A program made the translations under genes and the position numbers. The notes below the pieces were generated by a model that was not told the origin of the DNA, ran no database searches, and saw only the letters and a list, made by a program, of their open reading frames with translations. A stretch of 64,000 nucleotides of DNA, taken from positions 8,175,501 to 8,239,500 of the forward strand of contig NC_070560.1 of assembly GCF_026914185.1 (NCBI RefSeq), in the 5' to 3' direction. Of this stretch, positions 11,503-58,876 are shown piece by piece. The DNA comes from Puccinia triticina (lineage: Eukaryota; Basidiomycota; Pucciniomycetes; Pucciniales; Pucciniaceae). Positions within the stretch are counted from its first letter, which is position 1. Every line of letters begins with the position of its first letter.

Positions 11503-12305
11503 TGTGGTAGACGGAAAAGTGAAAAATCAAAAGTTTTTTCGCATACATATATTTACTCACAATACGCCTCAAGATACCATCAAACAGACCTCAGAAATGG
11601 ATTCTACGGCCAATTTTACCCCTAGTCACCACTGAAAGCATCACCTGAACCCCGCTGGATTGGAACCTACACTTCTTTGGACACTGGACACCCATCACAC
11701 GTTCAACATACCCAGTCACCAGCCTGTCACCAGCCTCAATTCAAGGATCACAGCATTATGCTTATACAAATCACAGGATACAAACATACATCTCCCCATC
11801 AGACTGCAGTCATTACATATTATCAAGTACTCTTCTATTTCCATATTATGATGTCATCACACACTGACTCTGCAGCCTCAGACTTCATTTATGCACCCCC
11901 TGCATCCACCTGTCAACTCATGCAGTCTACTGTCACTTTACGCAGCCTTCATGTGGCCCTAATGCATTCTTATGACATCATTTATGTACCCCTGACACAT
12001 TATGACATCATTTGTATCTACTCCCACCAGCTAAAATCCCTCACACTGTTGTCTAGATTAGTCAAAACCCTAACCCACAAGCCCTCTGGGGCTCCACTTT
12101 TGTCTATATAAGGAGCTCCCTCCTCCCCAGTTGTCAGCTCCTCAGTTCATTACTCACCAATCACAGTCACCCCAACATTTACAGTTCAGCCTTATATATA
12201 TACTTAAACAACCTACATAACAACCCTTACATTAACAATAACAACAATTTATTCAGTGTCATCAACAAGCTCATCTTGAACCAACCAACCCTATCACTTC
12301 ATTAA

Positions 12306-12337
<32 letters not shown>

Positions 12338-12427
12338 ATCTGATAGTATAGAAGGGCAGAGTTTGCACCTCCATCATCCCCTTCTCCATTCAGCAAAAGG
12401 TTCTCAGGAACACTTTTGAGTCTTACA
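11503..12427 (+). repeat. Element I 5' LTR
   Basis: Starts TGTGGTAGACGG and ends GAGTCTTACA, 925 bases. A TATA box (TATATAAG) lies at 12105-12112, so transcription should start near 12135. ORFs inside it (for example 11677-12111) recur exactly in the 3' LTR and are not genes. The segment directly downstream (AGGGAGTCCCCAACG) is where a primer-binding site should be, but it lacks the usual TGG start. Confidence 0.95.
12105..12112 (+). promoter_or_regulatory. TATA box in the Element I LTR
   Basis: TATATAAG sits about two thirds into the LTR. The matching position in the 3' LTR is 23077-23084. Element II has the same motif in its LTRs on the minus strand (35131-35137 and 45566-45572), so it is conserved between the two families. 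Confidence 0.6.
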
Positions 12428-13034
12428 AGGGAGTCCCCAACGTGATAGGATAATCTTGTTTGATCGACAACGGATAATCAATTTCAACCATATAACCAGA
12501 AATACATCGTCTACGGATCTCAACTTCGAGCGGAAAAAGGAATCAAATTCATCAACAAATCTATCAAACTCAACGGCATATTCAGTTATTCTGTTGAACG
12601 ACTAGTCGACTTTTAGGAACATCCAAAGGACCGATTACAAACCTCTGAAAAGAAAACTTAACCATCCGAACTGAAAAGAGTATCTCGAAGGAAGCAGCCA
12701 GTTATAAAACCTCAAGAAGGGCAAGAGTAAGACCTGAAGAATTTGGATAACTAGGATCCTGTTAGAAGAGAACTCCGGAATCGTTTGAAGAAAACAGCTG
12801 TTTATAAAACCTTAAGAAGGGCAAGTGTAAGACCTGAAGAATTTGGATAGGCAGAGACTGTTTGAAGAACAATCTCAGAACGGTAAAGTTATTTATATCA
12901 ATTATTAAAAGAAAACCCCCAATATGCCCTGGTAAAGAGACCAGAGACCAGATATTATTGTTTCTTTTTCAGAGCACAGTAACAGGTAGCAGCGGATATT
13001 CATATTACAAAACCAGGAATCAACACGAACCGGC
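12428..13034 (+). repeat. Element I untranslated leader with a 100-bp direct repeat
   Basis: There is no gene. The segment at 12700-12749 (TATAAAACCTCAAGAAGGGC … GAATTTGGATA) repeats with small changes at 12800-12849, a period of 100 bases. It lies between the LTR and gag where packaging or dimerisation signals of retroelement RNA would be expected, but that role is inference. Confidence 0.6.
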
Positions 13035-15518
13035 ATGAGTTTACCGTTCAGTCTACCAGATATGGAGAGCGGATTTGCTCCCTCCACCCCGTTTAGAAAC
13101 AGAACATTGACAGGAACTTCGGGACTGAATTGGAATTCGGAATCTACAAATCCACCTCCACCACCTAGGAAAGACAAGGGAAAGGGACCAGAGAATCAAT
13201 TCAGAGAGCAGACTGAAGAGGACTTATCAGACACTGATGAAACTCCACAACCCGAAAATATACCCCCAAGACAAACAACTCCACGACAACGACCTTCTGG
13301 GTACGGAATCCACAATACAGAAAATCAGCAAGAATATATGTTTCAGCCTCAATTTCAACAACAACAAATACCGATGCAAAATCCGCAACCTATGTATTAT
13401 TACCCCCAACCAATACCCCAATCAAAGCCAGTCATCATCAAAGAACCTGGGCTTTTCTACAAGGGTAGCCAGTTTATGAAGTTCCTGCAACGATTCGAGC
13501 GAGCGGCATATGGTCACGGAGCGTCGGATTGCGAGAAAGCAATCCAGATACCACGATTCATACGAACAGAAGAGTTAAAGTGCCAGCTTGAGGAAATGGA
13601 TGGGTACGATGATTATGATTGGAAGAAGCTTCGAGCGGCAATGGTCAAAGCCTGGGGTGACCTCGATAATACGATCATGTATACTGTGGACGACCTTATC
13701 AAAGTAGCTAAGCAGCAAGCTAAAGAAGGAATTTCAAGCTATCGGGATTATAAAGCGTACCTTGCAAAATTCACCCCGATCCTCAAGTATCTAGTAAAGA
13801 ACGAACATATCAACAAAGACGATGACGCCGGTTTACTATTCTTAAGTGCCTTCTCGACAGAAAGCCAACGAAGCATTAAACGCACACTCATCAATGAAAA
13901 TCAGCTTCCAAAGGCCAAGGATGGAAGTAACAAGGCACCAAAATGGGAAGACTTAACAAAGGCCGCGGAAACAGAGGTACAAGTTGACGAAGGTTACACA
14001 AATTTCTCCAGTTTCTCCGAATCCACGCGCATCATGCAGAAGGATTTGGATCTTAAGAAAGGCAACGGAAAGCGACGAGAGCAGATGCTAAAGGAAAGCC
14101 CAAGCAATAAGGAGGTAGAACAGAAACTACAAGAAGTACAGCAGGAGCTTGCCACGCTTAAACAACAGATCAAGAATGGAGCACCCACCGGCTATAATCG
14201 GCAAGGACCATCAGAAAAACAAGAATTCAACCGCGGAAATGCTCGGCCGTCAACCCCGCTATATGAAGCCCAGAACTGCTTTTATTGCAAGAGAGAAGGA
14301 CACCCTACCTATCAATGCCCAGAAGCAGCAAAAGACATGAAACAAGGCTTGGTGAAGCGAATTGGTAAAGAATGGTATTTACCTGACGGCCAGCAAATAC
14401 CGTGGGTACCTTCGAGACCAATACGATCAGTGGTTGCAGGAGCATCAGCCGAACCTCGAATGCAAGAAGCCATCAAGAAATTGGCGGACTCACAGCAAAC
14501 TGAAAATGGGAACACGGCCTTCATGAAAGCCTCAGTACAAACCATCCATTGGAGCCCTCCTACCTTAGGCGCGGAAAACTTCATGAGATCTCATCCTGTC
14601 ACTAGGTCAGAAGCTCAAAAAGGCCGACACGAAGTTAGGATCCAGGAACCAGAAAAAGATGCCATGGATATTGATCGTGAAGAAGAAGTGGACAGATCAC
14701 CAAAAGAAACTCCGAAAAAGGCGCCTGAGAAAGTCTGGAGCCGGGAACGAGTACCGACAATCCTGAAAAGAGACTCACCAGAGGAAGCCCTACTACAGGA
14801 CTTGGACAATGTCAAGATTCCCACAACGTTTGCACAACTCACTACGATATCGCCTTCATACACAGAACAGATCATAGCAAAATTACAGGGACGTCTGTCA
14901 GGCAAGAATACCTCCACCACCTACATCGCAACTGAAGCGGCCAAAGTAGCTGCACCAATGACCACCTTACCAGAGGAAGAAGGACCTTCAGATCCATGCT
15001 ACTACAGTTGTGCCCTGGGATACGTAACCGCGCAAGTTGGGGGAGAAAAAGTCGACTTTATGGTGGATTCCGGTTCTATGGTCAACGTCATACCCCGATC
15101 AGTAGCGGAGGACTTGGAGCTAGAATCTGTGATAGTGAACATACCCATGCAAGGTGTTGGTGGAGCCAGATGCGACATTACCGGCGTAGTCGAGAACTGC
15201 CCAATACAGATCGGCCGATTTTCCGGACCCGCTCACCTCTTTATATCACCAAAGGCTCAAGATTGTATTTTAGGGCGACCTTTTCTATTTGATTACGATT
15301 GCACTTTAGAATACCACGAAACAGGGGAGACTCTCACGTTTCAAGGAAACAAGGGTCGGCGAATTTCGGTACCATTGGCTCGAACCGGACAAGGACGAGG
15401 ATGGGATAATCGAAAGGATCTCAGTACCAATAGTATGAAATCAGTCCCAGCATCAGAACCTAGCAATAACGAAGAACATCGAATGTTTAAGAAGAAGCCG
15501 AATCAGCATTTTTTATAA
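13035..15518 (+). CDS. gag: Element I Gag-protease polyprotein
   Basis: An 827-residue ORF. The N-terminal third is Gln/Pro-rich and disordered, followed by a capsid-like helical region (about 140-330) and a basic, Gln-rich segment. One CCHC zinc knuckle (CFYCKREGHPTYQC, about 415-428) marks the nucleocapsid. The C-terminal part is a retroviral-type aspartic protease with the catalytic DSG in FMVDSGSMVNVIP (about 675-687) and the ILGRPFLFDYDC segment near residue 750. The start matches the homologous Element II start (MGLPFTNMPELE versus MSLPFSLPDMES). The ORF ends CAT TTT TTA TAA, and the codons before the stop form a slippery heptamer that would move ribosomes into pol. It packages element RNA and processes the polyprotein. 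Confidence 0.93.
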   Translation: MSLPFSLPDMESGFAPSTPFRNRTLTGTSGLNWNSESTNPPPPPRKDKGKGPENQFREQTEEDLSDTDETPQPENIPPRQTTPRQRPSGYGIHNTENQQEYMFQPQFQQQQIPMQNPQPMYYYPQPIPQSKPVIIKEPGLFYKGSQFMKFLQRFERAAYGHGASDCEKAIQIPRFIRTEELKCQLEEMDGYDDYDWKKLRAAMVKAWGDLDNTIMYTVDDLIKVAKQQAKEGISSYRDYKAYLAKFTPILKYLVKNEHINKDDDAGLLFLSAFSTESQRSIKRTLINENQLPKAKDGSNKAPKWEDLTKAAETEVQVDEGYTNFSSFSESTRIMQKDLDLKKGNGKRREQMLKESPSNKEVEQKLQEVQQELATLKQQIKNGAPTGYNRQGPSEKQEFNRGNARPSTPLYEAQNCFYCKREGHPTYQCPEAAKDMKQGLVKRIGKEWYLPDGQQIPWVPSRPIRSVVAGASAEPRMQEAIKKLADSQQTENGNTAFMKASVQTIHWSPPTLGAENFMRSHPVTRSEAQKGRHEVRIQEPEKDAMDIDREEEVDRSPKETPKKAPEKVWSRERVPTILKRDSPEEALLQDLDNVKIPTTFAQLTTISPSYTEQIIAKLQGRLSGKNTSTTYIATEAAKVAAPMTTLPEEEGPSDPCYYSCALGYVTAQVGGEKVDFMVDSGSMVNVIPRSVAEDLELESVIVNIPMQGVGGARCDITGVVENCPIQIGRFSGPAHLFISPKAQDCILGRPFLFDYDCTLEYHETGETLTFQGNKGRRISVPLARTGQGRGWDNRKDLSTNSMKSVPASEPSNNEEHRMFKKKPNQHFL
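15509..15515 (+). promoter_or_regulatory. Predicted -1 ribosomal frameshift site between gag and pol
   Basis: The heptamer T TTT TTA lies in the correct phase (CA-T TTT TTA-TAA) immediately before the gag stop at 15516-15518. It fits X XXY YYZ and is the same heptamer used at the gag-pol junction of HIV-1. After a -1 slip the ribosome reads ATA ACT ACC… with no stop until the end of pol at 19081. A downstream stimulatory RNA structure was not identified by eye. Confidence 0.7.
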
Positions 15519-18500
15519 CTACCGGCATCCAGCTAGGGAGTAATTTGCTTCAGCTAGTCAAGCAGGTTATATCTCGGACGCCGGGTTCTCTCGACTGGCC
15601 TAAATCATTTCTCCTAAAAAACTTTCAACAAACATCAAAACAGACAAAAACATTTTTTTCTAAAATCCTATCACTCATAGAGAATATTCTTATCATTTTC
15701 TTTACGCTATTGAAAATCTGTAACATTAGAAAAGACTCACTACCAGTTCCAGAAACAGTGCCTTCGGAAAAACCCGGCATTTTTGGATTAACTCCTTCAG
15801 TCAACACCACTAGAATACCGAAACCGGACAGCAACTCACAACAGCTTCTTGGATCCTTACTTACTAAAGGTTTGGGATCAAGGTTTCAAGATGGATTGTG
15901 CCAGAGTTGGAGGGACGGAAGCTTGTGGTGCATGACAAAGTATAAACCTGTAGCAAAGAAAATCAGACCAATCAATCAACCAATTCCACAAGCACTGAAT
16001 CCACCTCTTCAAAGACCACCGCTATCACGAGATCCCTACCAAACACCTCTTACGCCTCATCCACCAGACTTTAAGCCTACCGCTAGGATTACGGAAGAAC
16101 CCTTGAAAGTAGTAAACTTTGGACCCGACGGATGGCTGTGGGAGGAGGAATTAAAATTGTTCAAGCATTTAATCGTGATTCGAGAAAAAGCTGTGGCCTT
16201 CACGCCGGAGGAAAGAGGACTCTTGAAACATTCATATGGTTTACCATATGTCATACCGGTAATTGATCATGTACCATGGCAGAAGAAACCGATTCCAATC
16301 CCAGCAGCAATCAAAGACGAATACGTGGAGCAAGTACGGGAACGGGTACGGAATAAACTCTACGAGCAATCAACGTCAAGTTACTCTAGTCCGGTTTTTT
16401 GCGTACTCAAACATGACGGGAAGTTAAGGATAGTTCACGACTTACAAGAAATGAATAAAGTCACCATCAAAGACGCAGGGCTACCACCAGCAACAGAAGA
16501 GTTTGTGGAATCCTTTGCCGGACGAGCCTGTTATGGATTAGGTGATATTATGGGTGGATATGACGAAAGGGAATTGGCCCCGGAATCAAGACCTCTCACC
16601 ACCTTTGATACTCCGTTAGGAAGATTTCAACTCACCAGACTTCCGCAGGGCGCAACCAATTCAGTAGCAGTCTATCAAGCACAAATGATGTGGATTCTCC
16701 AGGATGAGATACCCGACCACGTAGGCGTATTTATTGACGATGGCGGTATTAAAGGGCCAAGTTCCACATACAATGATGAAGTTTTAGAAGAGAATCCCGG
16801 AATTCGACGTTTTATCTGGGAATACGCTCAAACGCTGGAAAGAATCTTATTCCGAATTGAAGAGGCGGGACTCACTATCTCAGGAAAGAAATTTGCATGC
16901 TGCGTACCTGCTTTGGATATTGTGGGTCATGTGGTCTGCAAAGAAGGACGAAGGGTTTCAGATCAGAAGAAGAATAAGATAACGACATGGCCAACTCCCA
17001 ATAACGTCACGGAACTCCGAGGCTTCATGGGAATCGTAACTTATGTCAGGATTTTCGTCAGGAATCTGTCTGAAATAGCTGCTCCACTCCGAAGGCTGAC
17101 ACGAAAGGACGTAGAATGGCTCTGGGACAAAAGCTGTGACGATGCCTTCAATCAGCTAAAAGAGATAATTGGAGAAGATATCACCCTGAAGAACCTTGAT
17201 TATTCGAAAGACGCAGGGCTTATTGTTTTAGCAGTGGATTCCAGTTTCATTGCGGCCGGTGCAGTACTCTCACAACAGGAGCTTGAAACCGGATTAAATC
17301 GACCAGTATTGTACGAATCAATTGTGTTTTCGCCAGTCGAATCGAAATATTCACAGCCTAAACTGGAACTCTGTGGGGTGGCACGAATCCTGAAAAAACT
17401 ACAAACGCTCTTATGGGGTCAACATTTCGAACTCCAAGTGGACGCGCAGTCCCTAATTCAAATGATCAACTCACCTTCACTTCCAAATGCCCCCATGACA
17501 AGATGGGTAGCATTCATCCAACTTTTTTCGTTCGAAATGGTGCATAAGCCAGGGAAAACGTTCACGATGCCAGACGCCTTGTCCAGACGTCCAATAAGCG
17601 ACGAAGAGGAAGAATTCTACAATGATACGGAAGACTTTGACGAGGAAGAACCCCTAATCAAAGCCTGCTCATGGTATAACATAATTTCAGCCTCAACGGA
17701 ACTATTGGAGTGGGAGACTTCTGGTTTCTGGACAGACCTCAAATATTATCTACAAACACTGCAGAGACCTTGTTCTATGGATCTGGAGGACTTTCAGAAA
17801 CTTAAACGAAAATCGGTTAACTATTTTATCCAGAATGGACGACTCATGAGAAGACATTCACCCATGCCACAACTAGTGATCTCCAAGATATCCTACCAGA
17901 GCAAGTTATTACGAATGGTTCACGAAGATCTAGGACACCGGGGACTTGAGGAAACATACCAGCGATTAGTCTGCCGATTTTGGTGGCCAAGTTTGAAGAA
18001 AAAAGTCAAATTATGGGTACATAGCTGCGAACCTTGTCAAAAGAGGGACCCATTAGTTCCACGAGAAATACGGCACCCCACAGGAGAGAGTAGCTTATTC
18101 GGACGAGTAGCTTTGGACGTCTGTTATATCAAAGCTGGACGGTACAAGTACTTGCTAGTAGCACGGGATGATTTGTCTGGATGGGTTGAAGCAGCTCCTC
18201 TGGTGAAACTGACAGCCGCAACTATTGGAAAATTTCTCCTTGAAGAATGGGTCTATCGATATGGCGTAATCAAAGCGGTGACGGCAGACAATGGACCGGA
18301 ATTCAAGAATGAATTCATCAAAGCAGTCGAAAAGATTGGAGCAGTATTTAGGCCTCCTACACCTTATTATCCTGAAGCCAATGGTATGATTGAAAGAGGA
18401 CACCGACCCATTAAAGACACCCTAATCAAGATGTGTGGCGAATCTGGTGGGAAATGGAGGGAATATCTGCCTTTAGTACTCTTTGCTGACAGAATTTCGA

Positions 18501-19081
18501 CAAAACGCACAACGGGATATTCACCTTACGAGCTGGTGTTCGGCCAGAAAGCGGTTCTCCCGGTTGACTTGGAAATGGACACTTATCTGGGGATTGATTG
18601 GACTGAAGTCAGCACCACGGAACAACTCTTGGAGGCAAGGACTATGCAACTGGAACGTCGAGAAGAAATTCTAGGGATAGCTCACGAAAAGTTGATGAAG
18701 GTCAGAAATTCATCTGTTCGATACTGGGATCGACGAATGGCAGCAAGACTTCGGAAGCCGTTAGATCCAGGAGAACTAGTTTTGGTCTACAACAAAAGCC
18801 TGGAGGATCAGTGGGGAAAGTTGTTTGCAAATCGATGGAACGGACCTTTTCGGATCAAGCAACAACTACCCAAGGGTTCCTATATCTTGGAAGAATTGGA
18901 TGGGACTGAACTCAAGAGGGCTTATGCAGCTTCACATATCAAACGGTTTTACCCTCGAGGACGTGAACTAGCAGACATTCAGGAGGATGAGGATCCATCT
19001 CAGCCGGAGCCTGCAGACGACGAAATGGAGGAAGTATCTGGCAACAGTTCGGATGGTGGATCATCAGATGGCTCTGACTGA
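15515..19081 (+). CDS. pol: Element I Pol: reverse transcriptase, RNase H, integrase
   Basis: The frame is open from the slippery site to 19081 (about 1188 codons after the slip) with no suitable ATG at its start, consistent with expression as a Gag-Pol fusion. Numbered from 15545: a linker with a hydrophobic stretch (ILIIFFTLLKI, about 52-62); RT from about 255 with YSSPVFCVLKHDGKLRIVHD (about 279) and the catalytic FIDD of VFIDDGGIKG (about 394), where most Ty3 elements have YLDD; RNase H with AVDSS (about 562), PKLELCGV and VDAQSL; integrase zinc finger (HEDLGHRG to CEPCQKR, about 792-835); and integrase core Asp in ALDVCY (about 857), Asp in TADNGPEF (about 914) and Glu in NGMIERG (about 948). 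WNGPFRI near 1099 is the GPF/Y module. There is no chromodomain; the C-terminus is acidic and Ser-rich. All catalytic residues are present. Confidence 0.93.
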   Translation: MTTGIQLGSNLLQLVKQVISRTPGSLDWPKSFLLKNFQQTSKQTKTFFSKILSLIENILIIFFTLLKICNIRKDSLPVPETVPSEKPGIFGLTPSVNTTRIPKPDSNSQQLLGSLLTKGLGSRFQDGLCQSWRDGSLWCMTKYKPVAKKIRPINQPIPQALNPPLQRPPLSRDPYQTPLTPHPPDFKPTARITEEPLKVVNFGPDGWLWEEELKLFKHLIVIREKAVAFTPEERGLLKHSYGLPYVIPVIDHVPWQKKPIPIPAAIKDEYVEQVRERVRNKLYEQSTSSYSSPVFCVLKHDGKLRIVHDLQEMNKVTIKDAGLPPATEEFVESFAGRACYGLGDIMGGYDERELAPESRPLTTFDTPLGRFQLTRLPQGATNSVAVYQAQMMWILQDEIPDHVGVFIDDGGIKGPSSTYNDEVLEENPGIRRFIWEYAQTLERILFRIEEAGLTISGKKFACCVPALDIVGHVVCKEGRRVSDQKKNKITTWPTPNNVTELRGFMGIVTYVRIFVRNLSEIAAPLRRLTRKDVEWLWDKSCDDAFNQLKEIIGEDITLKNLDYSKDAGLIVLAVDSSFIAAGAVLSQQELETGLNRPVLYESIVFSPVESKYSQPKLELCGVARILKKLQTLLWGQHFELQVDAQSLIQMINSPSLPNAPMTRWVAFIQLFSFEMVHKPGKTFTMPDALSRRPISDEEEEFYNDTEDFDEEEPLIKACSWYNIISASTELLEWETSGFWTDLKYYLQTLQRPCSMDLEDFQKLKRKSVNYFIQNGRLMRRHSPMPQLVISKISYQSKLLRMVHEDLGHRGLEETYQRLVCRFWWPSLKKKVKLWVHSCEPCQKRDPLVPREIRHPTGESSLFGRVALDVCYIKAGRYKYLLVARDDLSGWVEAAPLVKLTAATIGKFLLEEWVYRYGVIKAVTADNGPEFKNEFIKAVEKIGAVFRPPTPYYPEANGMIERGHRPIKDTLIKMCGESGGKWREYLPLVLFADRISTKRTTGYSPYELVFGQKAVLPVDLEMDTYLGIDWTEVSTTEQLLEARTMQLERREEILGIAHEKLMKVRNSSVRYWDRRMAARLRKPLDPGELVLVYNKSLEDQWGKLFANRWNGPFRIKQQLPKGSYILEELDGTELKRAYAASHIKRFYPRGRELADIQEDEDPSQPEPADDEMEEVSGNSSDGGSSDGSD

Positions 19082-19671
19082 GCTGGATCACACCTACCAG
19101 GGTTGTTGTTTAAGTTGGGGGAGGAAAAAAGACCTGCTCCTGACAAAGTCACTCTTTAAATAATTTCAATTGTCAGTTCAGTGGATATCAGGACCATCTT
19201 TTCAAACCAAAGCAAAAACTCAACATAAAACAACAACAAAAAAAAAAAAAAAAAAAAAAAAAACCTCACACAGCTTCTATACTGTTCCTTCTTCTCCATT
19301 TCTCTTATCTTTTTTCTCTCTCTTTCTCTCTCAGTGGTATGCTTACAGGGAAGGTTGGGGACAACCTGTTTAAGTTGGGGGAGGGGGGTCTGGGATGGAT
19401 TAATTTCAAAAATGAAAAGAACAAAAGACAACAATAAAATAAAAATAACTAATCATCTTTATCCTTAGGGTTCTGGGGGTTTTACAATTTTTTTTTTTTT
19501 TTTTTGAGTTTTTTAGGATTATCTATCGATTTTTTTTGAGAAGGATACGTTTTACCCCGGGTACTCTGGACAAAAGATTAGTAACAACAGAAAACTAGGA
19601 AAGAAACAAGCCAGAGGATCAGTATTGTGGGTGTAAGCAGGTGTAAAAAGAGGAGGAAACTCACGAAGGAA
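19082..19671 (+). other. Element I post-pol spacer with two internal polypurine tracts
   Basis: The motif AAGTTGGGGGAGG, which also precedes the 3' LTR, occurs here twice (19112-19124 and 19372-19384). Between them are an A run (about 19234-19263) and a pyrimidine-rich tract. A T run lies at about 19488-19505. No ORF is convincing. The spacer separates pol from the 3' end of the antisense gene, which stops at 19672. Confidence 0.7.
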
Positions 19672-21021
19672 CTAGTCATCGTAGCCAGCTTGACGCATGG
19701 TAGATCGAAACTCTTCGGATACGACCTGGAAGATGTGAACTTGCTGGATTCGACCGTTGACGACCTCGTTGGGAATCTGCTGGCAGTAGGGTACGAAGGC
19801 TCGAGCAAAAGTGTGATAGAGCCTAGTATAGGCCTCGGAGTCGATTGCGAAACGAGCACAATGCTCGATAGCTAAGGGACGATGGGGCTCCAGGAGAGCT
19901 TGGACTTGGAGGTCGCTTAAGAAGGGGTAATCCTCGATCGGGGGTTGACCAATGATGGAGGGGGTGGAAGCACGAGAAATGCTACTCATGCTGACGTCGT
20001 CCGCCAGATCAGTCTCGGTGACACCATCGGCATCGGCCTCACCATCGGCATCACCATCGGCATCATCAACGCCGTTGGCATTGGCACCACCTTCAGGATC
20101 AACGGCATCAACCTCGATGGGTTGATGACCGTTGGGCTTGTTACCAGTAGGCGCGGGCGGGTTAAGCCAGTCGGCAGGTGATAGAGTAAGGAGAAGGACG
20201 TACACCACCCGACCACTCAATAAGGAGGTCCATCCCATCATCGGCGCGATCGGTCTCGGCAGTAGCTTCCCCGGATTGAGATGAGCCTGACGCACCCGAA
20301 CCCTGGGAACGATCCCCATACTCGGCCGAGGAATGAGACCCGTACTCGGACGAATCTGCGATCGAGTTTCGACAGCTGATAGCCGGCGAAGTGAGGTTGC
20401 TGGGACGAGGAGCAGCCGGTACCAGCCACTCGTCGCCTATGACAACTCGGTTGGATACTAAGAACTGTGTGGCGAAGATCGGTGGTCAGGAACTCGCATG
20501 GAAAAAAAAAAAGGGGAAGAGAAAGATTGACTCACTGGATTGTCGGCTTCGTCGGAAGCGGGTCGATAAACGGGCGAGTTGGGATGTGATCTCTCACCCG
20601 GGAGGCGAGGTTGGTATACTGGAGACGCCTGGCCGGGACTGGCTGCATCCGCACCCTGAAAGCGGGGGTGGAGGCCCACCAACCCGGGGGGAACCCGCGA
20701 CGGGGAGGGCGACGGGGTCCGGAGTTCGGACGGGGAATCCGGACGATCACTGGATGCGATAATCTGAAGTAACCGAAGAATGGAGTCAGTATTGGATCGG
20801 ATAGCTTACAGCGGTCCGGATATACAACTCACCGAAGCCACTTGGGCCATCGCCGATCCGGCAACGACAAAAGGCCAATGATCCGGAGAAGCCGGGCCAT
20901 CAGCTGAGCGATTGACTCGGGTTCGAGGTCGATTGGGGCGGTTGAACGCTTCCAAACGCTGGCGGGACCATTGGAACCATGAAGGACGAATCACCCCGCC
21001 TCTGTACATAGGCCCGTCCAT
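19672..21021 (-). CDS. Element I antisense accessory gene, 4 exons, unknown function
   Basis: Four minus-strand exons join in phase 0: 21021-20833 (donor GTGAGT), 20763-20536 (donor GTGAGT), 20464-20204 (donor GTACGT) and 20136-19672. They give 380 codons. The last acceptor ends in AAG rather than CAG or TAG. The protein opens MDGPMYRGGVIRPSWFQWSR, has a Pro/Ser-rich middle (SELRTPSPSPSRVPPG), an acidic Asp-Ala-Gly repeat segment, and a helical C-terminal domain (LLEPHRPLAIEHCARF … RIQQVHIFQVV … MRQAGYDD). The C-terminal pattern F-x(6)-C…P…RI-x(5)-FQ…AGY recurs in the antisense gene of Element II (36521-37941). No known domain is recognised. Transcription would run opposite to gag-pol and end near pol. 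An upstream exon may exist. An envelope protein is unlikely because no signal peptide or membrane anchor is seen. Confidence 0.65.
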
Positions 21022-22460
21022 GATAAGGATAGGGTTGTGTACAGAGGAACCTGGCTAGTAGCAGAACAACCAACACGGGTCAGCAGTGCGACAGGACGGC
21101 AAGCTACTGGTATGAGGAACAAAATGGACGCACTCGAGTTGAAGCGCTAGCAGAGGCCCCGCGGGCTCGTAACGGGTAAGGGGACGGGGAAAAGTAGGTA
21201 CGATAGTAAGGTCTGTTGGACATGGTAGCAGACGAAAGTAATAAGCCTAGAAAAGTAGTACTGGGGAGGAGTGAGGTGGATGATGAGGTGGGAGGAGGCG
21301 AGGGGAACCTTTTTTATACTCACCTCGGATTCTGTGAGGACTCATAGGGACTTAAGGACCCGTAGTCCTTTTGCCCCATGCGCGGGCTCTGAACGGAGGC
21401 CACAGACCATTGGTAACTAGAGGTTGGATCGTTCGACTCGACCGAATAGGAACCCCAGATAGAGTCGAGCCGGACGGCGTGCGGGGCCATCTCTCCCTCC
21501 GGAACGATACGTACTCGAACCCACGGCCAGGTCTTGAGAAGCCGGCTGTTGTAGGAAGCGGAAAGAATGCGGCAATTAGTCTTACCGTCTTAGGGCCGGC
21601 CGCTATGAGATCGCCGGCTGGAAACCAACCTTGCCGGCGAAGGCAGCCCAATCAGAAACCCCGAAGACCTGTCAGATTCGGTGGTGCGAGTGGGGCTGGT
21701 AATAAATCTGACGGCTGCATCAGCCAACGTAACGGCCACTCAGCTGTCGAGGAAGAACACGAACGCACTTACTTCGAAAATGAACCCTGCTCACTAGCAG
21801 GGTTCAGTCTAGCTGCAGGCTTGGATGGTGCGAGACCTCGACGGCGGCGGTGATGTATCCGAGGGAATCGGAAGGTCGGCGAAGTTGTGTATGGGTCTTG
21901 AACCCCAAACCCATACGCCTTGAACTCCTGAATAAGCCATACCCCCGAAGGGGGTACGACCGACACACATACACACTTGAGACCCGAATGCGGGGTCGGG
22001 ATAGCTATTGGACGGGTACGACCAACACTAAGTACCCGGGCCCAAAGCCCGATCAGTCAACCATCAAGAACGGGTACGAGTCCCCGATCACTACTCGACA
22101 CTCGAGGCCCGCGGCCTCGACAGCGCGCACCCTGAGGCGCTGGAGCAGCAGCTGCGGCCGCCACCATAGCACAAGCAGCACCATTGGGCAACTTCGCAAC
22201 TGTGGACTGCGGACTGCGCGCAGCACTTCGACTCCCAGACACCTTAAAAATTTCCCTTCAAGAAAAGTCAGAAAAACGACAAAAGTTGAATTTTTGACCA
22301 AAATTCACCCCACCCAGCCTCTCTGACACAGTACCCAGAAGACATCCAACGGCCAAATTCCCAAGGATTCTTCATGTCACCCAGTAAAAAACTCAAGCCT
22401 CAAGCTTCCAAAATTCAAGATACGGCACTTTTCCGGTGGAATTGTCTGGGGACAGACAAT
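21022..22460 (-). other. GC-rich upstream region of the Element I antisense gene
   Basis: This 1.4 kb part of Element I is visibly richer in G and C than its LTRs. It has many short ORFs in both strands (for example 21371-21853) but none matches the antisense protein of Element II. It should contain the promoter of the minus-strand gene and perhaps a further 5' exon. The contrast in base composition is consistent with capture of the cassette from elsewhere. Confidence 0.45.
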
Positions 22461-22474
22461 AAGTTGGGGGAGGA
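22461..22474 (+). promoter_or_regulatory. Element I polypurine tract
   Basis: AAGTTGGGGGAGGA directly abuts the 3' LTR (22475), the position from which plus-strand DNA synthesis starts in LTR retrotransposons. The same 13-mer core occurs twice more just after pol. Confidence 0.85.
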
Positions 22475-23277
22475 TGTGGTAGACGGAAAAGTGAAAAATC
22501 AAAAGTTTTTTCGCATACATATATTTACTCACAATACGCCTCAAGATACCATCAAACAGACCTCAGAAATGGATTCTACGGCCAATTTTACCCCTAGTCA
22601 CCACTGAAAGCATCACCTGAACCCCGCTGGATTGGAACCTACACTTCTTTGGACACTGGACACCCATCACACGTTCAACATACCCAGTCACCAGCCTGTC
22701 ACCAGCCTCAATTCAAGGATCACAGCATTATGCTTATACAAATCACAGGATACAAACATACATCTCCCCATCAGACTGCAGTCATTACATATTATCAAGT
22801 ACTCTTCTATTTCCATATTATGATGTCATCACACACTGACTCTGCAGCCTCAGACTTCATTTATGCACCCCCTGCATCCACCTGTCAACTCATGCAGTCT
22901 ACTGTCACTTTACGCAGCCTTCATGTGGCCCTAATGCATTCTTATGACATCATTTATGTACCCCTGACACATTATGACATCATTTGTATCTACTCCCACC
23001 AGCTAAAATCCCTCACACTGTTGTCTAGATTAGTCAAAACCCTAACCCACAAGCCCTCTGGGGCTCCACTTTTGTCTATATAAGGAGCTCCCTCCTCCCC
23101 AGTTGTCAGCTCCTCAGTTCATTACTCACCAATCACAGTCACCCCAACATTTACAGTTCAGCCTTATATATATACTTAAACAACCTACATAACAACCCTT
23201 ACATTAACAATAACAACAATTTATTCAGTGTCATCAACAAGCTCATCTTGAACCAACCAACCCTATCACTTCATTAA

Positions 23278-23309
<32 letters not shown>

Positions 23310-23399
23310 ATCTGATAGTATAGAAGGGCAGAGTTTGCACCTCCATCATCCCCTTCTCCATTCAGCAAAAGGTTCTCAGGAACACTTTTGAGTCTTACA
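22475..23399 (+). repeat. Element I 3' LTR
   Basis: 925 bases, same ends and length as the 5' LTR, and every ORF read in one copy recurs unchanged in the other. It is followed by the TSD GCGT at 23400-23403. Confidence 0.95.
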
Positions 23400-27196: not shown

Positions 27197-27889
27197 TGTC
27201 ATGCGACAGAAGGATCTGACCTTCTTAAGATAAAAGGACAAATCAAATCTTGGAGTTGCAACGGGCCAATAACCTTCTCGGCCATCGACATGAAATCTTC
27301 TAGCAGCAAGGGATCAATAACCATTCTTGATCTCTTGCTTGAACCATCAATCGCGTTGAATCATCAATTGCACCCAGACACAAATCCAAATCTAACCAAC
27401 TATCATTCTAAAAATCCCAGTCAATTTCTGTCTTAATCTTCGGCGCAGGATCCTTGAGTAAATAACCTCCTTCTCACTCTCAGTTATCTAGCGGCCACAC
27501 TTTCAATCAATCCCTCGCAGGACTCAAACAACCCATTGCCAAAGTCAATAGGCACCACTAGTTTGGTTTTCATCATTATGCCCCTGTCCTGTTTCATGAC
27601 ATGCAGTATTCCTTGTGTGCGTGTTCTCTATATGTACGGTTGCTTGTATCATGTTTTCCTCTTTCCTCATCAAAATAAGATTATAGTTTCAAGCATTCTT
27701 GGTTGCCTTCTTGTGCAATTTCTATTCCGTGTCCCTCCTAGTGTCTCTAGCTTAGAGTCCGATTATCAAAGCATTTCTCTGAAGTCAGAAGCTACTTCCA
27801 ACTCAGCCTCTCCTTGCTGTTAGTCTTTCACCACTTCCTTTCCTTCCCCAAGTGCCCACCCGTCTGCCTGTACCAGGCACCATGTGACA
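27197..27889 (+). repeat. Element III 5' LTR
   Basis: Starts TGTCATGCGACAG and ends CCATGTGACA, 693 bases. It pairs with 51852-52627, which differs by many substitutions and by internal duplications that lengthen it to 776 bases. ORFs inside (for example 27536-27823) recur in the other LTR and are not genes. Confidence 0.92.
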
Positions 27890-28174
27890 GTACCTTATTT
27901 TGATCCGGTTTTTAAAATCTTCTCCGAAAATTCCGTCAAACCCTACCCTTTGTACAGTTCTTCCAGTTCTTCCCACTTCAACATGCCGACCATCCCTTGT
28001 TCTCCAAACCAACAGTTCGCACCTCGGGCTCCAATTGACCAAACTCTGACTTCCCAAATTCCCGTTTGAGTTTCTGTCCTGGGGTTACCACCTCAAGTTC
28101 AGGTCAAACGCAGTTGTGGGTCAAGTCAGGGGCAGTTTGGCCCCCCATCAAATTCTTCTTGAAGGAGCTTCCGC

Positions 28175-29293
28175 GGTTCGCGTTGTGGGGAGGATGAGGA
28201 TTCCTACAATGATGAACAACTGGAATATCAAGACCAAGACCCAGCCATCAACGGAGAGGAGATCAATGATACTCTGGACGGTCACAATTTCCCGGAGCCG
28301 TCCCCTGGCCCTGAACCGAATCCTCTTCCTGCTTCCAACTCCGTCATGGCGCCCCCAACACCTGTTTCAAACAAGTCGTTAGCCCAAGCCATTCAGCTCT
28401 TGGCTACCATTGTGGGCCAAGGAGCGTTACCAGTGGTTGTTTCAGAACCAGCCCCTCGACCTTCTTTCCGAACTCCCAAGATGAAGAAACTAGATCCTTT
28501 CAATGGTTTTTCTCCCAGCAAACTCCAAGTCTTCTTGCAGCAATGCAAGTTGATTTTCCTGAACAATCCTCACACGTTTCCCACTGATTGTGCCCAAACG
28601 CTCTGTGCCTCATCATATCTGACTGGCAAAGCATTTGACTGGGTCCAACCCTACTTGGAGGTTTTGGAGAATGCGGCTCCAGATTTATTGATGAATTCCT
28701 GGGTTGTTTTTGAAGCTCAGATTGTCACCCTCTTTGGCAATCCAAGCAAGCTCTGCGCCACCGAACATCAAATCAACATGCTTGTGATGAAAGAGACGGA
28801 TCACGCCTCCAACTACATCGCCAGTTTCCAAGCCCTTCAGTCCTGCCTTCCGGGTTGGGGTGATCGCCCATTGATGTTTCATTTCTGGAAAGGCCTTCCC
28901 TCACGCATTCTTGACCTCTTGTCCCAGAACAACGCTGAGGAGTTTCTCAATTTCGGGGAACTCATCAATGCGACTCTCCGCATTGATGCGCACTACCATG
29001 AACGTCAGAAGGAAAAATGACGCAAGAACAACTCTCACCCCGCCCAGGCCAAGAAGGACAACTCTGGAAAGACGACCACCAACGCAGGACAAACCGGCCC
29101 CGCCTCCGGATTGTCCACCTCCAAGCCGACTTCAAAGGCTGCCATGGAGATCACTAAGGTGCTCACTGATGGCCACCTGCAGGCGGTCGAGAAGGAGCGG
29201 AGATTGAAGGCTGGATTGTGTTTGTACTGTGGGGGTCAACATGAGTTTGAGGATTGCGCCAAGCGCGCGGCCCGCAAGTCGGGAAAAGTTTAA
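28175..29293 (+). pseudogene. gag: Element III gag with one premature stop
   Basis: The clearest ATG is at 28346 (MAPPTPVSNKSLAQ), but the same frame stays open upstream through an acidic, Pro-rich segment. The capsid region (KLDPFNGFSPSKLQVFLQQC … FWKGLPSRILDLL) is typical of chromovirus Gag. A TGA at 29018-29020 interrupts an otherwise open frame, most simply a CGA arginine codon changed to TGA. The frame then continues to a zinc knuckle (CLYCGGQHEFEDC, about 29219) and ends at TAA 29291-29293. Confidence 0.85.
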
Positions 29294-33770: not shown

Positions 33771-33777
33771 CAGCAAT

Positions 33778-36520: not shown

Positions 36521-37941
36521 ATGCCTAACGGAATCGTTTCGAAATTGACTCCTATCCTCTCCTTGCCACGGGGGTCAATGGGGTCCCTGTGCAAGGAGAG
36601 TATCGTCCGCTTCAAAGCCGATCCTCAAGAGATAAAAGCGTTTTGTCTTCAGCTCTTCCGTTCCGTCTTCAGTCTGCACGCCAAGCTTTCTCTTATCGAT
36701 AGCTATCTTCAGAACTTTATGCCTTCCACTCGCCGTCGTTCTCAACGTGTCTCTGCTGAGGCTCCCCCCTTCGTGGTAGCTCCTGATTGTTGTTATGGCC
36801 TATAAGTTCTGCGCCACGATTCTGATCGTGATCTTTCCTTTGCTTGTTCCTCAGCCGGCTCGTAATGCTCGTCCTTCTCCTCCGACCGATAACGTACATA
36901 CTTTTGCTCGTCCTTCTCCTCCTCCCTCCTCCTTACTTATTTTATCGTTTTCCCTTTTTATTTAGTCTGAGTTTGGGACCCTTGTGTCTTTGAACCGTCT
37001 CGAGATCGATACCACAGTTACTTTTGGAGCGGTTGGGGAGCCTGTTCCTAGCCAGAAGACCTCCAACGAATCGGTACGTTCGCCAGTTTCCCTTCTTCTT
37101 TTTATTTCCGTGTTTCTAACTTCTTTGTTTGTCGTTTTTTTTTTTTTTTTTTTTTTTTTTCCAGGACATGGATGTTGATCCTGCCGCTGGTCCCCGCCAT
37201 GCTGATGTGGTGCTCAACTCGGTTCGTTTTCCATCTTCCCTTTCTTTTCCTTGGATGATACTGATCTTTTGTTATTGTTTCCAGGTCGATCGAGTTCAGG
37301 ACGGGATCAATTTTTACCCCATCCGCGGTGATTGGTCCCCGGCCTGGATTAGCAACTCCTCCATTCAAGCTCCTCCTGGCTTGGCCAGCCCGGTCTATCC
37401 GCCGGTATCCGATTCCTCCACTAGTCCTTCCAGTGTTACCTCCACTTCGCCCGCCAGTTCTCCAGCTCCAGGAGCGACTGCGGCGGCTCCGATTGTTGTC
37501 GATTCTTCTACGGAGGGGACTTCAATTGATGCTGTCATGAATGACCCGCCTCCTTATGTGGCTGACCGTGTCGATCCTGCTGAAGCTCTTCCTCGTCCGA
37601 ATTCACCCATTGAGTTTGGTCCAGTCACTGATTGGGCCACTGAAGGTCCGCCACCTGCTCCGCCGGCCGTTTCTACTCGTCTAATTAATCTTGAACTTCC
37701 CCAAATTCGCCGTACCCTCGTGGGTGACCATACTGTTCCGTTCGGTACCCAAGTCTACCAGGAAGAAGACTTGCTCGTCATTTTCAACCATATCGCCGAC
37801 GACTTCATCCTTCACTGCAACCGATATCCAGCGTCCACCCTCGACGAGCTTGAATCCCGTATCACTTTGTTTCAGAATTTCCAATGGGCGTTCACCGCCA
37901 ATCGAGCGGTGTTCCTTACCACCCACGCCGGCTACTTCTAG
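36521..37941 (+). CDS. Element II antisense accessory gene, 5 exons, unknown function
   Basis: Five exons join in phase 0: 36521-36775, 36855-36893, 36966-37073, 37165-37221 and 37285-37941. Donors are GTAGCT, GTACAT, GTACGT and GTTCGT; acceptors are CAG, TAG, CAG and CAG, one after a run of more than 20 T. The product is about 371 residues, or 305 if translation starts at the in-frame ATG at 36719. The order is a basic N-terminus (MPSTRRRSQR), a short acidic part (DMDVDPAAG), a Ser/Pro/Ala-rich linker, and a helical C-terminal domain (IFNHIADDFILHC … ELESRITLFQNFQWAF … HAGYF). That C-terminus resembles the Element I antisense protein, and GLASPVYPP matches GQASPVYQP there. No known domain is recognised. 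A further donor-like site (TAG/GTATGT) at the stop suggests a spliced 3' UTR. Conserved spliced frames on the antisense strand argue for real expression. Confidence 0.7.
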
Positions 37942-38594: not shown

Positions 38595-41500
38595 TCATTC
38601 TGAGCTTTGCGATTCTTCCTCGGAGTCTTGGTCCGAATCCTGATCTAAATCTTCGACTTCATCCTCCTGAATTTCGGTCAATAGCCGTCCTCGTGGATAG
38701 AATCTTTTGATATGTGATGCTGCGTAAGCCCTCTTTAGTTCTGTTCCGTCTAGTTCTTGCAAAATGTAAGATCCACCGCTGAGTTGCTTCTTAATTTTGA
38801 AAGGCCCGTTCCAACGATGCGCAAACAGCTTTCCCCATTGATCCTCTAGACTTTTATTGTAAATAAGAACCATTTCGCCCGGGTTTAAAGGTTTCCGAAG
38901 TCGGGCCGCCATTTTTCTGTCCCAGAACCTAACTGATGATTCTCGTGTCTCTTGAAGCTTCTGATGAGCTATTCCTAGGATTTCCTCCCTTCTCTCCAGT
39001 TGCCGCGTCCGTGCTTCCAAGAGTTCCGCAGTTGTACTAATGTCTGTCCAATCAATTCCTAAATATGTATCCATTTCCAGGTCCACGGGTAAAACTGATT
39101 TCTGGCCAAATACCAACTCGTATGGTGAGTATCCTGTCGTCCGTTTTGTAGAGATCCTGTCGGAAAAAAGTACTAAAGGCAAATATTCCCGCCACTTTCC
39201 CCCAGATTCTCCACACATTTTTACCAAGGTATCTTTAATAGGTCTGTGCCCTCTTTCAATCATGCCATTAGCTTCTGGGTAGTAGGGTGTTGTAGGCTTA
39301 AATTTTGCTCCAATCTTTTCCACAGCTTTGATAAATTTGTTTTTAAATTCCGGCCCGTTGTCGACCGTGACTGTCTTGATAGGACCGTACCGATAAACCC
39401 ATTCGTCTAGTAGGAATTTCCCAATTTTTGCTGCCGTCAGCTTTTCTAGAGGCGCCGCTTCTACCCATCCAGATAAATCGTCCCTGGCCACCAGTAAGTA
39501 CTTGTACCGCCCCGCTTTGATATGGCATACGTCCAATGCTACACGACCAAACAATGTACTTTCTCCAGTCGGATTTCGGATTTCTCGGGGAATTAAAGAG
39601 TCCCGTTTCTGGCATGCTTCACAGCTTTGGACCCAAAGTTTCACTCGTTTCTTCAAACTTGGCCACCAAAATCTGCAAACTAGTCGTTGATAAGTTTCTT
39701 CTAATCCTCTATGCCCTAGTTCCTCGTGGACGTTTTTCAACAGCTTGAACTGATAATCTGTATTGGATATCACTAGTTGTCCCATGGGTACGTGCCGCCT
39801 CATTAGTTTCTGGTCCTGCACAAAGAAGTTAACTGATTTTCGTTTTAATTGTCTAAAATCTTCTGGTTCCATCCCCTCAGGCTTCTTCAGAGATAACAGA
39901 AAGTATTTAAGGTCCATCCAGAATCCCGGCGCTTCCCATTCTTGTGGTTCCAATGATGTCTTCAGAATTCTAAACTGCGAACAGACTTTGATTACCGGTG
40001 CGTCCTCGTCGAAATCCTCTTGGTCTTCATAGAACTCTGATTCGTCCTCACTGATTGGCCTTCTAGATAGCCCGTCCGGGAGGGTAAATGTGCTCCCTTT
40101 TCTGTGTACAATATCGAATGAAAAGAGTTGGATGAAAGATACCCAGCGCGTCATCGGGGCGTTTGGAAGTGATGATGAGTTAATCATTTGAATTAATGAC
40201 TGTGCATCCACCTGGAGTTCAAAATGTTGACCCCAAAGATATATCTGTAGCTTCTTTAGAATTCTTGCTACCCCGCAAAGTTCTAATTTCGGTTGCGAGT
40301 ACCGGGATTCTACGGGTGAAAACACGATGGATTCGTAAAGTACCGGACGATCTAGTCCTGTTTCTAACTCTTGTTGAAGGAGAACCGCGCCGGCCGCAAT
40401 GAAGCTTGAGTCGACCGCTAACTTAATCATTCCCGCATATTCCGAGTAATCTAGTTTCTTCAAGGTGATTTCTTCTCCAATAATCTTTTTAAGTCTTTCA
40501 AAGGCTTCGTCACATTCTTGACCCCAAACCCATTCTACGTCCTTTCTTGTGAGTTTCCTAAGGGGTGCCGCGATTTCGGAAAGGTTCTCGATGAAGATTT
40601 GAACGTAAGTTACTATTCCCAAGAATCCCCGTAATTCCGTTACATTATTTGGTGTAGGCCATGTTGATACTTTATTTTTCTTGTGCGCTGAAACTCGCCG
40701 TCCTTCTTGACAGACCACGTGACCAACAATATCCAGAGCCGGAACGCACACTGCGAACTTCTTCCCCGAGATCGTAAGTCCTGCTTCTTCAATTCTGAAC
40801 AAGATTCTCTCCAAAGTAACCGCATATTCCCAAATGAATCTTCTGATTCCTGAGTTTTCGTTTAGGACTTCGTTATTGTATCTGCTGCTAGGCCCTTTTA
40901 TTCCTGCATCGTCAATGAATACTCCCACGTTTCCGGGTATTTCGTCTTGAAGGATCCACATCATCTGTGCTTGGTATACTGCTACAGAATTGGTAGCACC
41001 TTGAGGGAGACGAGTGAGTTGAAATCTTCCTAGTGGTGTGTCAAAAGTGGTCAATGGTCGTGACTCTTCCGCTAATTCTCGTTCGCCGTATCCGCCCATG
41101 ATGTCGCCTAGACCGTAACAGGCCCTTCCTGCAAAGGATTCTACAAATTCCTCTGCTGCCGGTGGTAATCCTGCGTCCTTGATAGTGACTTTATTCATTT
41201 CTTGCAGGTCGTGGACAATTCGAAGTTTCCCGTCTGATTTTGCTACACAAAAAACTGGACTCGAGTAACTTGAGGTTGACTGTTCATATAAGCCTGTCCT
41301 GATTCGTTCCCTGACTAACTCCACATATTCGTCTTTTATTGCAGCTGGAATTGGGATCGGTTTCTTCTGCCAAGGCTGATGGTCTATGACTGGTATTACG
41401 TAAGGTAAGCCGTATGAATGTTTCAGAAGTCCTCTTTCCGCTGGGCAAAATGCTATTGCTTTTTCTCGAATCGTGATCAGGTGTTTAAAGAGTTTTAATT

Positions 41501-43928: not shown

Positions 43929-44434
43929 TCGTCGTATCCGTCCATCGCCTCGAGTTCGCTTTTGAGTTCCTCCGTCTGCACAAATCGTCCGATCTGTAAC
44001 GCCTTATCGTAACCCGTTGCCTGGTATGTCCTTGCTGCTCTCTCGTATCGTTTCAGAAACTTCATAAAGTGGGTCCCGTTGTAGAGCAATCCCGGGTCTT
44101 TAATAATTTTTGGTGCTCCTCTTTGCATAACAGGAGACTCGTCTTCTTCTTCCATAAGTCCTTCAGATTGGCGAACATTATGCATCCCGTATCCCTGAGC
44201 TTGTGGTCTAGGTCGACTTTCGTTCTGAGGTGTACCGGAGTCTGATTCATTTCCGCCTTCCTCTTGATCTCTATACGTGTTTGCAGGTCCTTTGTCTTTG
44301 TCTGGGCGTGGTGGTGGTAAACCGGTTTGTGGATTCCAGTTCGAAGTGTTTGAAAAAAATCGGTTTCTCGAAGGAGTTTCTAGAGGAGCAAATCCGCCTT
44401 CCAATTCTGGCATGTTTGTAAATGGTAAGCCCAT
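43902..44434 (-). pseudogene. gag: Element II Gag N-terminal part, displaced by a one-base frameshift
   Basis: Starts MGLPFTNMPELEGGFAP, matching the Element I Gag start, and runs through the Pro/Arg-rich region into the capsid (DPGLLYNGTHFMKFLKRYER, MDGYDECDWRKLR). At about 43901-43909 the frame leaves the track followed by Element I (DYDWKKLRAAMVKAWG) and stops at KIW. The downstream frame continues MVESWGELDD. One base appears to be missing. The site is inside the capsid and has no slippery heptamer, so it looks like a mutation or sequencing error. Confidence 0.85.
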
Positions 44435-46480: not shown

Positions 46481-46509
46481 GTGGGGTGTGTTTGTACATA
46501 GCCCAGTTG

Positions 46510-58870: not shown

Positions 58871-58876
58871 GGGGGG

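What the first reader, a model, noticed from the sequence alone, without database searches (positions are those of the whole stretch)
19672..21021. A spliced, antisense accessory gene sits between pol and the 3' LTR of a Ty3/gypsy element
On the strand opposite to gag-pol, four exons join in phase 0 to a 380-codon frame with Pro/Ser-rich, acidic and helical parts. LTR retrotransposons rarely keep introns, because reverse transcription of a spliced sense RNA removes them; introns on the antisense strand are not recognised in the sense RNA and so persist. The gene is found in the same place in the related Element II. Antisense extra ORFs are known in some plant gypsy elements, but I know of no described spliced one in rust fungi.
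Basis: partly seen in the sequence, partly recalled or inferred. Interest (0 to 1): 0.88.

Follow-up and report, generated by a model that had tools for sequence, protein, structure and literature searches.

The report
Spliced antisense gene in rust retrotransposons
A family of jumping elements in a wheat leaf rust genome carries, on the strand opposite to its own genes, what looks like an intron-bearing protein gene kept by selection; such backward genes are known in other elements, and this one is unusual for its introns and their conservation.

Summary
The window is Puccinia triticina Pt15 haplotype A (size and contig count match). Between pol and the 3' LTR of a Ty3/gypsy element with identical LTRs, the minus strand holds a spliced frame. 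There are four phase-0 coding introns and, by eye, a 3'UTR intron. Selection for protein is clear: A-B fixed differences fall 4/2/17 on codon positions; dN/dS between loci is 0.19-0.40, with intervals below 1 in eight of nine comparisons. Pol lies on the opposite strand in 29 of 37 loci; 8 had no pol hit. Element II has a probable distant homologue. The kind is known (Grande gene23, RIRE2, Retand, Boty brtn); my searches listed no multi-intron coding version in rusts. Transcription and function are untested.

The parts
11503..12427 (+). 5' LTR of Element I
   Evidence: 925 bp, 100% identical to 22475-23399
12990..15518 (+). gag-protease ORF of Element I
   Evidence: 842 aa; Asp_protease_2 2.3e-08
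15491..19081 (+). pol ORF (RT, RNase H, integrase) of Element I
   Evidence: 1196 aa; RVT_1, RT_RNaseH, Integrase_H2C2
19112..19125 (+). internal copy of the polypurine-tract sequence, just after pol
   Evidence: TTGGGGGAGG core: 6 in the window against 0.2 expected (first-order estimate), 3 in each element
19372..19385 (+). second internal polypurine-tract-like copy
19595..19664 (-). likely 3'UTR intron (GTGAGT..CTAG), 7 nt after the stop codon
   Evidence: read by eye; a GT..AG stretch at or just after the stop also in the 5 non-A copies printed there (L059, L061, L075, L068, L071) and in Element II
19672..20136 (-). last coding exon as read in the window copy, with stop
   Evidence: its ancestral 5' part is deleted in this copy
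20137..20203 (-). last coding intron as read in the window copy (GTACGT..AAG)
   Evidence: ancestral acceptor removed by the deletion at about 20175
20204..20464 (-). coding exon 4
20465..20535 (-). intron 3 (GTGAGT..CAG)
20536..20763 (-). coding exon 3 (TPSPSPSRVPPGLVGLHPR block)
20764..20832 (-). intron 2 (GTGAGT..CAG)
20833..21054 (-). coding exon 2 (PGSSVHNPI..PSWFQWSRQR block)
21055..21133 (-). intron 1 (GTGCGT..TAG)
   Evidence: 24% fixed A-B differences against 1-3% in exons
   Evidence: MSNRPYYRTYFSPSPYPLR; aligned start in families A, D, E, F, G
21312..21318 (-). TATA box of the antisense gene (TATAAAA, 95 nt before ATG)
   Evidence: TATAAAA 60-150 nt upstream in 32 of 37 loci
22461..22474 (+). 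polypurine tract abutting the 3' LTR
   Evidence: same sequence directly followed by TGTGGT, the letters with which the window's LTR begins, in 19 of 20 loci of families D-G
22475..23399 (+). 3' LTR of Element I
36719..37941 (+). antisense gene of Element II: exons 36719-36775, 36855-36893, 36966-37073, 37165-37221, 37285-37941; all junctions phase 0 by hand reading, 305 aa
   Evidence: reading; last exon and its acceptor checked by script (the other coordinates in that script were one base off and were not rerun); probable homology
38595..44003 (-). gag-pol of Element II, opposite to its antisense gene
   Evidence: 1802 aa, PR-RT-RNaseH-IN

Best explanation
A lineage of Ty3/gypsy elements in P. 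triticina carries a selected accessory gene in a module between pol and the 3' LTR, on the antisense strand. It most likely has its own TATA promoter, gives an antisense mRNA from which four coding introns and one 3'UTR intron are removed, and encodes an acidic, mostly low-complexity protein with a conserved N-terminal block and a conserved C-terminal block. Because the introns are on the antisense strand, the sense genomic RNA carries them intact and each new copy keeps them. I infer, without direct evidence, that the protein is a nuclear regulator of the element's own expression or integration, comparable in role to what is proposed for Grande gene23 and to retroviral antisense proteins such as HBZ. 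Shown by sequence: gene structure, position, conservation, selection. Inferred: transcription, promoter use, splicing, protein function. The window copy carries a derived form whose last ancestral splice acceptor is deleted.
For: Exon ends fall on the same codons with GT and AG in families A and D and, nearly so, in E; F and G agree with small shifts, partly by eye. In the 17 family-A copies 50 of 51 introns 1-3 have both sites. dN/dS: A-D 0.20 (0.12-0.28), A-E 0.25, A-F 0.26, A-G 0.30, D-E 0.34 and 0.26, D-D 0.40 (0.24-0.62), F-F 0.19. A-B fixed differences are 16 synonymous and 7 not, against 4/19 and 1/20 in the other two frames of the strand. TATA box in 32 of 37 loci. Pol on the opposite strand in 29 of 37 loci, same strand in 0, no hit in 8. 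Two annotation projects, perhaps not independent, model much of it: PtA15/PtB15 and PTTG proteins. No intron is precisely lost in any family-A copy.
Against: No RNA was examined. No known domain: the only listed matches are weak (Pfam TrAA12 0.16, PDB 5npv_B 0.71, none in NCBIfam), and the structure tool was off, so the regulatory role rests on analogy, charge and composition. Within family A some close pairs have dN/dS above 1 (L015-L009 1.58, L015-L016 2.44; also 0.81 and 0.26) on 7-11 changes, as decay after insertion would give. A-B pairs range 0.33-0.55. G-G 0.25 has an interval reaching 1.11. Many copies are broken, and the window copy has lost an ancestral splice site. Introns 2-4 of A and B differ little.
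Confidence: 0.82

Rival explanations
1. The region yields a spliced antisense non-coding RNA that regulates the element; the open frame is incidental. Spliced antisense lncRNAs of TEs are reported in Blumeria.
For: Precedent in a plant-pathogenic fungus (PMC10648671, passages); many copies have broken frames.
Against: Codon-position bias 4/2/17, dN/dS 0.19-0.40 between loci, no stop in 448 codons where 12 are expected.
Confidence: 0.07
2. A host gene with promoter and introns was captured whole, in antisense, by read-through into flanking DNA, and is now carried as a cassette.
For: TATA box, introns and a likely 3'UTR intron look like an ordinary fungal gene; the module lies between copies of the polypurine-tract sequence in both window elements and in 13 of 20 further loci.
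Against: No host or other-species homologue found: the protein searches gave only 6 P. triticina records for Element I (one search was capped at 8000 candidates) and none for Element II. This concerns origin and does not exclude the best explanation.
Confidence: 0.35
3. Constraint comes from something on the sense strand (packaging signal, RNA structure, sense ORF), not from an antisense protein.
For: Sense genomic RNA must pass through the region; one reverse frame shows a similar synonymous count (15/7), as expected where third positions face each other.
Against: The three reverse frames of the intact spliced sequence hold 10, 20 and 24 stops, and the shared GT..AG sites are on the antisense strand. 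Sense-strand splice signals and RNA structure were not examined.
Confidence: 0.03
4. In the window copy the gene is a dying remnant: the deletion took the ancestral acceptor, the kin's fallback AACCAG is absent too, and only a weak AAG site remains.
For: the unspliced form runs into stops in 6 of 6 deletion copies.
Against: Deletion copies make up 6 of 17 family-A copies, 5 of the 6 keep an open frame with an in-frame fallback acceptor, and the window copy's LTRs are identical.
Confidence: 0.35

Closest known systems
Antisense additional ORFs between pol and 3' LTR (aORF-3R) of plant Ty3/gypsy: Grande gene23, RIRE2, PvRetro13
   Same: Same place and orientation, conserved over copies, no clear similarity to known proteins; Grande gene23 has its own promoter (PMC7264820, passages)
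   Different: Fungal; only a TATA box is seen here, promoter use untested; introns on the antisense strand, while the word intron does not occur in the main text of that review
Retand elements with antisense TRP28 (PF04195) ORFs
   Different: No PF04195 match here in 7 of 7 proteins scanned; the word intron does not occur in that main text
Boty / BcGypsy1 with antisense gene brtn (Botrytis cinerea)
   Same: Fungal LTR element with an additional antisense gene
   Different: brtn sequence and exon structure were not available to me (Zhao et al. 2011 seen only as a citation); whether brtn is spliced I cannot say. The Boty-like gag-pol has a chromodomain; none was listed here
HTLV HBZ / APH antisense genes
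   Same: Antisense genes of retroelements; spliced antisense transcripts are named for HTLV-2, -3 and -4 (PMC8622228, passages)
   Different: Retrovirus; HBZ is of bZIP type (recalled); no bZIP match here
Spliced TE-antisense lncRNAs of Blumeria hordei
   Same: Introns on the antisense strand of TE loci in a fungal pathogen (PMC10648671, passages)
   Different: Reported as non-coding; here the codons are under selection

Membership tests
aORF-3R (antisense accessory ORF, pol to 3' LTR) | lies between pol and the 3' LTR | tested here: met
   Window: pol end 19081, gene, PPT 22461, LTR 22475; PPT directly followed by the letters of the LTR start in 19 of 20 loci of families D-G (their LTRs were not otherwise checked)
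aORF-3R (antisense accessory ORF, pol to 3' LTR) | opposite strand to gag-pol | tested here: met
   29 opposite, 0 same strand, 8 without a pol hit, of 37
aORF-3R (antisense accessory ORF, pol to 3' LTR) | present in most copies of the family | tested here: inconclusive
   Copies were found by searching with the gene or its region itself, so elements without it were not counted
aORF-3R (antisense accessory ORF, pol to 3' LTR) | transcribed from its own promoter (shown for Grande) | tested here: inconclusive
   TATAAAA 60-150 nt upstream in 32 of 37 loci; no RNA data
Ty3/gypsy LTR retrotransposon (the carrier) | domain order protease, RT, RNase H, integrase between LTRs | tested here: met
Retand TRP28 proteins | PF04195 domain | tested here: not met
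   No match in 7 of 7 proteins at E up to 1, HMMER filters on
HBZ-like antisense bZIP genes | bZIP domain (recalled) | tested here: not met
   No bZIP family among matches
Boty brtn | sequence homology to brtn | not testable with these tools
   brtn sequence not held
Nuclear regulatory accessory protein | nuclear localisation | not tested

The most novel reading that the evidence does not exclude
The pol-to-LTR module is a cassette: an intron-bearing gene with its own promoter, bracketed by copies of the polypurine tract, exchanged between element lineages and held by selection. Its introns survive because only the sense strand is ever reverse transcribed. The element thus carries and keeps an ordinary split eukaryotic gene, which could be a general route by which retroelements acquire spliced genes.
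Probability: 0.35. Interest if true: 0.78.

Novelty: new variant of a known kind. Interest (0 to 1): 0.6.

Why it matters
Intron loss by reverse transcription is the usual reason given for intron-poor retroelements. A set of related elements that carry the same antisense introns over deep divergence is a natural test of that rule, and gives antisense accessory genes, whose role is unknown in plants too, a system where selection can be measured. It also warns genome annotators: several copies are listed in P. triticina as ordinary hypothetical proteins.

Tried and rejected
Annotated first exon. Four of the six database proteins (P0001-P0004) begin with MA(P/L)HA.. and splice past my ATG. I reject it as conserved coding sequence: in family F it has an in-frame stop in 5 of 5 copies; no match to its first 44 residues at this place was listed in D, E or G; and by eye P0001 and P0003 differ at 12 of its 56 residues. 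An A-specific alternative start remains possible.

Unspliced last intron. I first noted that the last intron of the window copy is 69 nt and open when unspliced. This was wrong: it is 67 nt, and read-through meets a stop in 6 of 6 deletion copies.

Exon gap lengths. Besides the deletion itself, 8 of 16 exon gaps in family A are multiples of three; too few to use as evidence.

First homology search scored only the 8000 candidates sharing most words; the region search scored 1454 candidates and gave the same 6 P. triticina records. Element II region search: none at E up to 1 among 70 candidates. TE genes are often masked before annotation, so absence elsewhere is weak evidence.

Element I against Element II: hhalign probability only 25% (E 7.6e-4); a four-family profile gives 6.7 bits, reached by 4 of 2996 scored shuffles (3000 made). 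I call it probable. Searches failed on a wrong option.

G against A: pol C-terminus dS 0.47 but gene dS about 2.0 (saturated), and D-E exons 1-3 dS 0.77 against exons 4-5 0.08: I read this as recombination of the module between lineages.

Rows dropped: of 40 loci fetched, L026 (same place as L063), L027 (a fragment) and L028 were left out of the counts of 37. The F row of alignment A1 lacks most of exon 4 and the start of exon 5. Codons with gaps or stops were skipped in dN/dS. Only one or two copies per family entered.

Full report
What the window is. G000 has 122,823,596 bases in 18 contigs, the values given for haplotype A of Puccinia triticina Pt15 (PMC9927501, Table 1, passages seen). Element I spans 11503-23399: two 925-bp LTRs without a difference, gag-protease 12990-15518 and pol 15491-19081. 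Identical LTRs mean a recent insertion (established reasoning).

The observation. DNA of 19600-21100 has 17 copies in the genome that cover most of it, the window's included, some cut at the gene's 3' end (the tool calls its counts lower bounds). I used all 17 (L009-L025) and 20 further loci (L059-L078) picked from the protein search, which lists some of its 190 exon matches.

Corrected gene model. An upstream exon, 21223-21134, starts with ATG and joins in phase 0 through a 79-nt intron (GTGCGT..TAG). Its protein, MSNRPYYRTYFSPSPYPLR.., has aligned counterparts in families D (MPRRTYYRTYF..), E, F (MSHRPYYRPYF..) and G (MPVSSTYRTYY..). TATAAAA stands 60-150 nt upstream in 32 of 37 loci; in L025 the script did not locate the start, and L015, L024, L062 and L066 lack the heptamer in the 200 nt searched. 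Most database models use another first exon; reasons against it are under Tried and rejected.

Introns. In family D the exon matches run from first to last residue and are flanked by AG and GT at nearly every boundary; in E they agree within a residue or two; in F and G the boundaries shift a little, matches do not always reach them, and I read some by eye. Intron sequence between families was not measured, only its flanks seen. In family A, introns 1-3 have both sites in 50 of 51 cases, and no intron is cleanly missing. In L075 (family E) only 19 bases separate exons 1 and 2, an imprecise loss. After the stop comes one more likely intron, by eye, in the window, in the five non-A copies printed (L059, L061, L075, L068, L071) and in Element II. 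In family G it falls at the stop itself.

The window's own copy. Eleven of 17 copies have some 86 bases more at about 20175; these hold the last acceptor (TGAACAG) and the first 43 bases of the last exon. The window copy and five relatives (L010-L014) lack them, three of these with 3 bases more gone. With AACCAG as acceptor four of those five relatives keep an open frame and one has 2 stops; the window copy lacks AACCAG and is open with AAG. The annotated protein PtA15_3A108 (P0002) reads ..EWSGG-PAPTGNEPNG.., which is the AACCAG junction. The lost residues include the EWDxTWxTLPxW block, shared by A, D and E and partly by G.

Selection. Between subfamilies A (11 copies) and B (5 copies), 23 coding sites are fixed differences: codon positions 4, 2, 17; 16 synonymous, 7 not. 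The chance of 17 or more of 23 at third positions is 8e-5 if positions were equal. Fixed differences reach 24% in intron 1 and 7% upstream, and 1-3% in exons; introns 2, 3 and 4 have 5.8, 3.1 and 0%, so the exon-intron contrast rests mainly on intron 1. Pairwise dN/dS with bootstrap ranges: A-D 0.20 (0.12-0.28), A-E exons 1-3 0.25 (0.15-0.38), A-F 0.26 (0.16-0.39), A-G 0.30 (0.19-0.45), D-E exons 1-3 0.34 (0.22-0.51) and exons 4-5 0.26 (0.09-0.61), D-D 0.40 (0.24-0.62), F-F 0.19 (0.10-0.33), G-G 0.25 (0.05-1.11). The highest dS values are near saturation. L015 against B copies gives 0.33-0.55 and against L025 0.51. The pol C-terminus is held more strongly, 0.03-0.08 in four comparisons; A-F was saturated, and L015 against the window gave 0.30 on two changes. 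Among close family-A copies gene ratios go from 0.26 to 2.44 on 7-11 changes. Of 16 in-frame stops in the 17 family-A copies, 14 are CGA-to-TGA.

Position. In 29 of 37 loci the end of pol was found in the fetched flank, always on the opposite strand; in 8 no pol was found there. In 19 of the 20 loci of families D-G the polypurine-tract sequence AAGTTGGGGGAGG[AT] is directly followed by TGTGGT, the letters with which the window's LTR begins; in the family-A loci no such place was seen, and the fetched flank on that side is short.

Polypurine copies. The core TTGGGGGAGG occurs 6 times in the window against 0.2 expected by a first-order estimate, three times in each of Elements I and II: twice after pol, once at the LTR. 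The exact 14-mer occurs both after pol and at the LTR in 13 of 20 loci of families D-G, and after pol in 11 of 17 family-A loci. The antisense module therefore sits between copies of the tract. Either the inner copies prime plus-strand DNA, as internal tracts do in some retroelements (recalled), or they mark how the module came in. I cannot separate these.

Element II. On the + strand, 36719-37941, five exons can be read, all in phase 0, for 305 aa (reading; in the script all but the last exon were one base off). Its C-terminus aligns with family A-G in the same register (hhalign probability 25%, E 7.6e-4), and a four-family profile scores it above all but 4 of 2996 shuffles. A broken relative on contig 17, 70% identical over 557 of the 654 coding bases of the last exon, differs mostly at third positions (31/19/68). 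Element II pol is 82% identical to Element I pol over 1052 residues, so the gene evolves far faster than pol.

What it may do. The L015 protein (448 aa, pI 4.8) is positively charged in residues 1-80, strongly acidic in 241-360, 28-50% Pro/Ser/Thr/Gly in the 40-residue blocks of the first 360 residues and 12-18% after that. No domain was recognised. Acidic stretches with Trp, Leu and Phe (DDGMDLLIEW..EWDDTWTTLPDW) resemble acidic activation regions; this likeness is from memory. A nuclear regulator of the element is my best guess, about 0.35 by itself.

Novelty. Antisense genes between pol and the 3' LTR are known in plants and in Boty (PMC7264820, PMC11963269, PMC8365987, PMC4227169: passages). 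My seven answered paper searches listed none whose title or abstract start names a spliced coding one in a rust element; I read passages of nine papers, and the library lacks most subscription papers. The rust TE survey PMC12210899 does not hold the word antisense in its main text.

Noticed in passing
19112-19125, 19372-19385, 22461-22474; cores on the minus strand at 35637-35646, 38383-38392, 38448-38457: Polypurine-tract sequence in three copies in each of two related elements, bracketing the antisense module; exact pairs in 13 of 20 further loci.
   Followed up: partly
L071, L075 against the window: Gene and pol seem to have different histories: family G has pol dS 0.47 but gene dS about 2 from A; family E joins D-like exons 4-5 to distinct exons 1-3.
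   Followed up: partly
15491-15518: In Element I gag-protease and pol are in different frames overlapping by 28 nt, whereas Element II has one 1802-aa ORF.
   Followed up: no
32819-34601 and 46070-47158: Inverted repeats of 272 and 119 nt (90% and 82%) and arrays of GACCGGTCATCGAGG-like units flank Element II, as if it sat in an inverted-repeat element.
   Followed up: no
27225-32570 and 51912-52376: An older Ty3-type element (gag, RT, RNase H, integrase) whose repeat ends are 95-96% identical over the stretches shown, with Element II apparently nested inside.
   Followed up: no
54326-59176: Copia-type element, 1310-aa ORF with RVT_2, terminal repeats identical over the 300 nt shown.
   Followed up: no
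50010-50819 minus strand: ORF with DUF6818 (1.6e-11).
   Followed up: no
L067-L070, L074 (family F): Family F seems to hold a second copy of the TPSPxRxPPGL block before exon 3 (seen in L067 and L070), perhaps an exon duplication.
   Followed up: no
P0001-P0006: Copies of this retrotransposon gene are deposited as hypothetical proteins of P. triticina, four of six with a doubtful first exon.
   Followed up: yes
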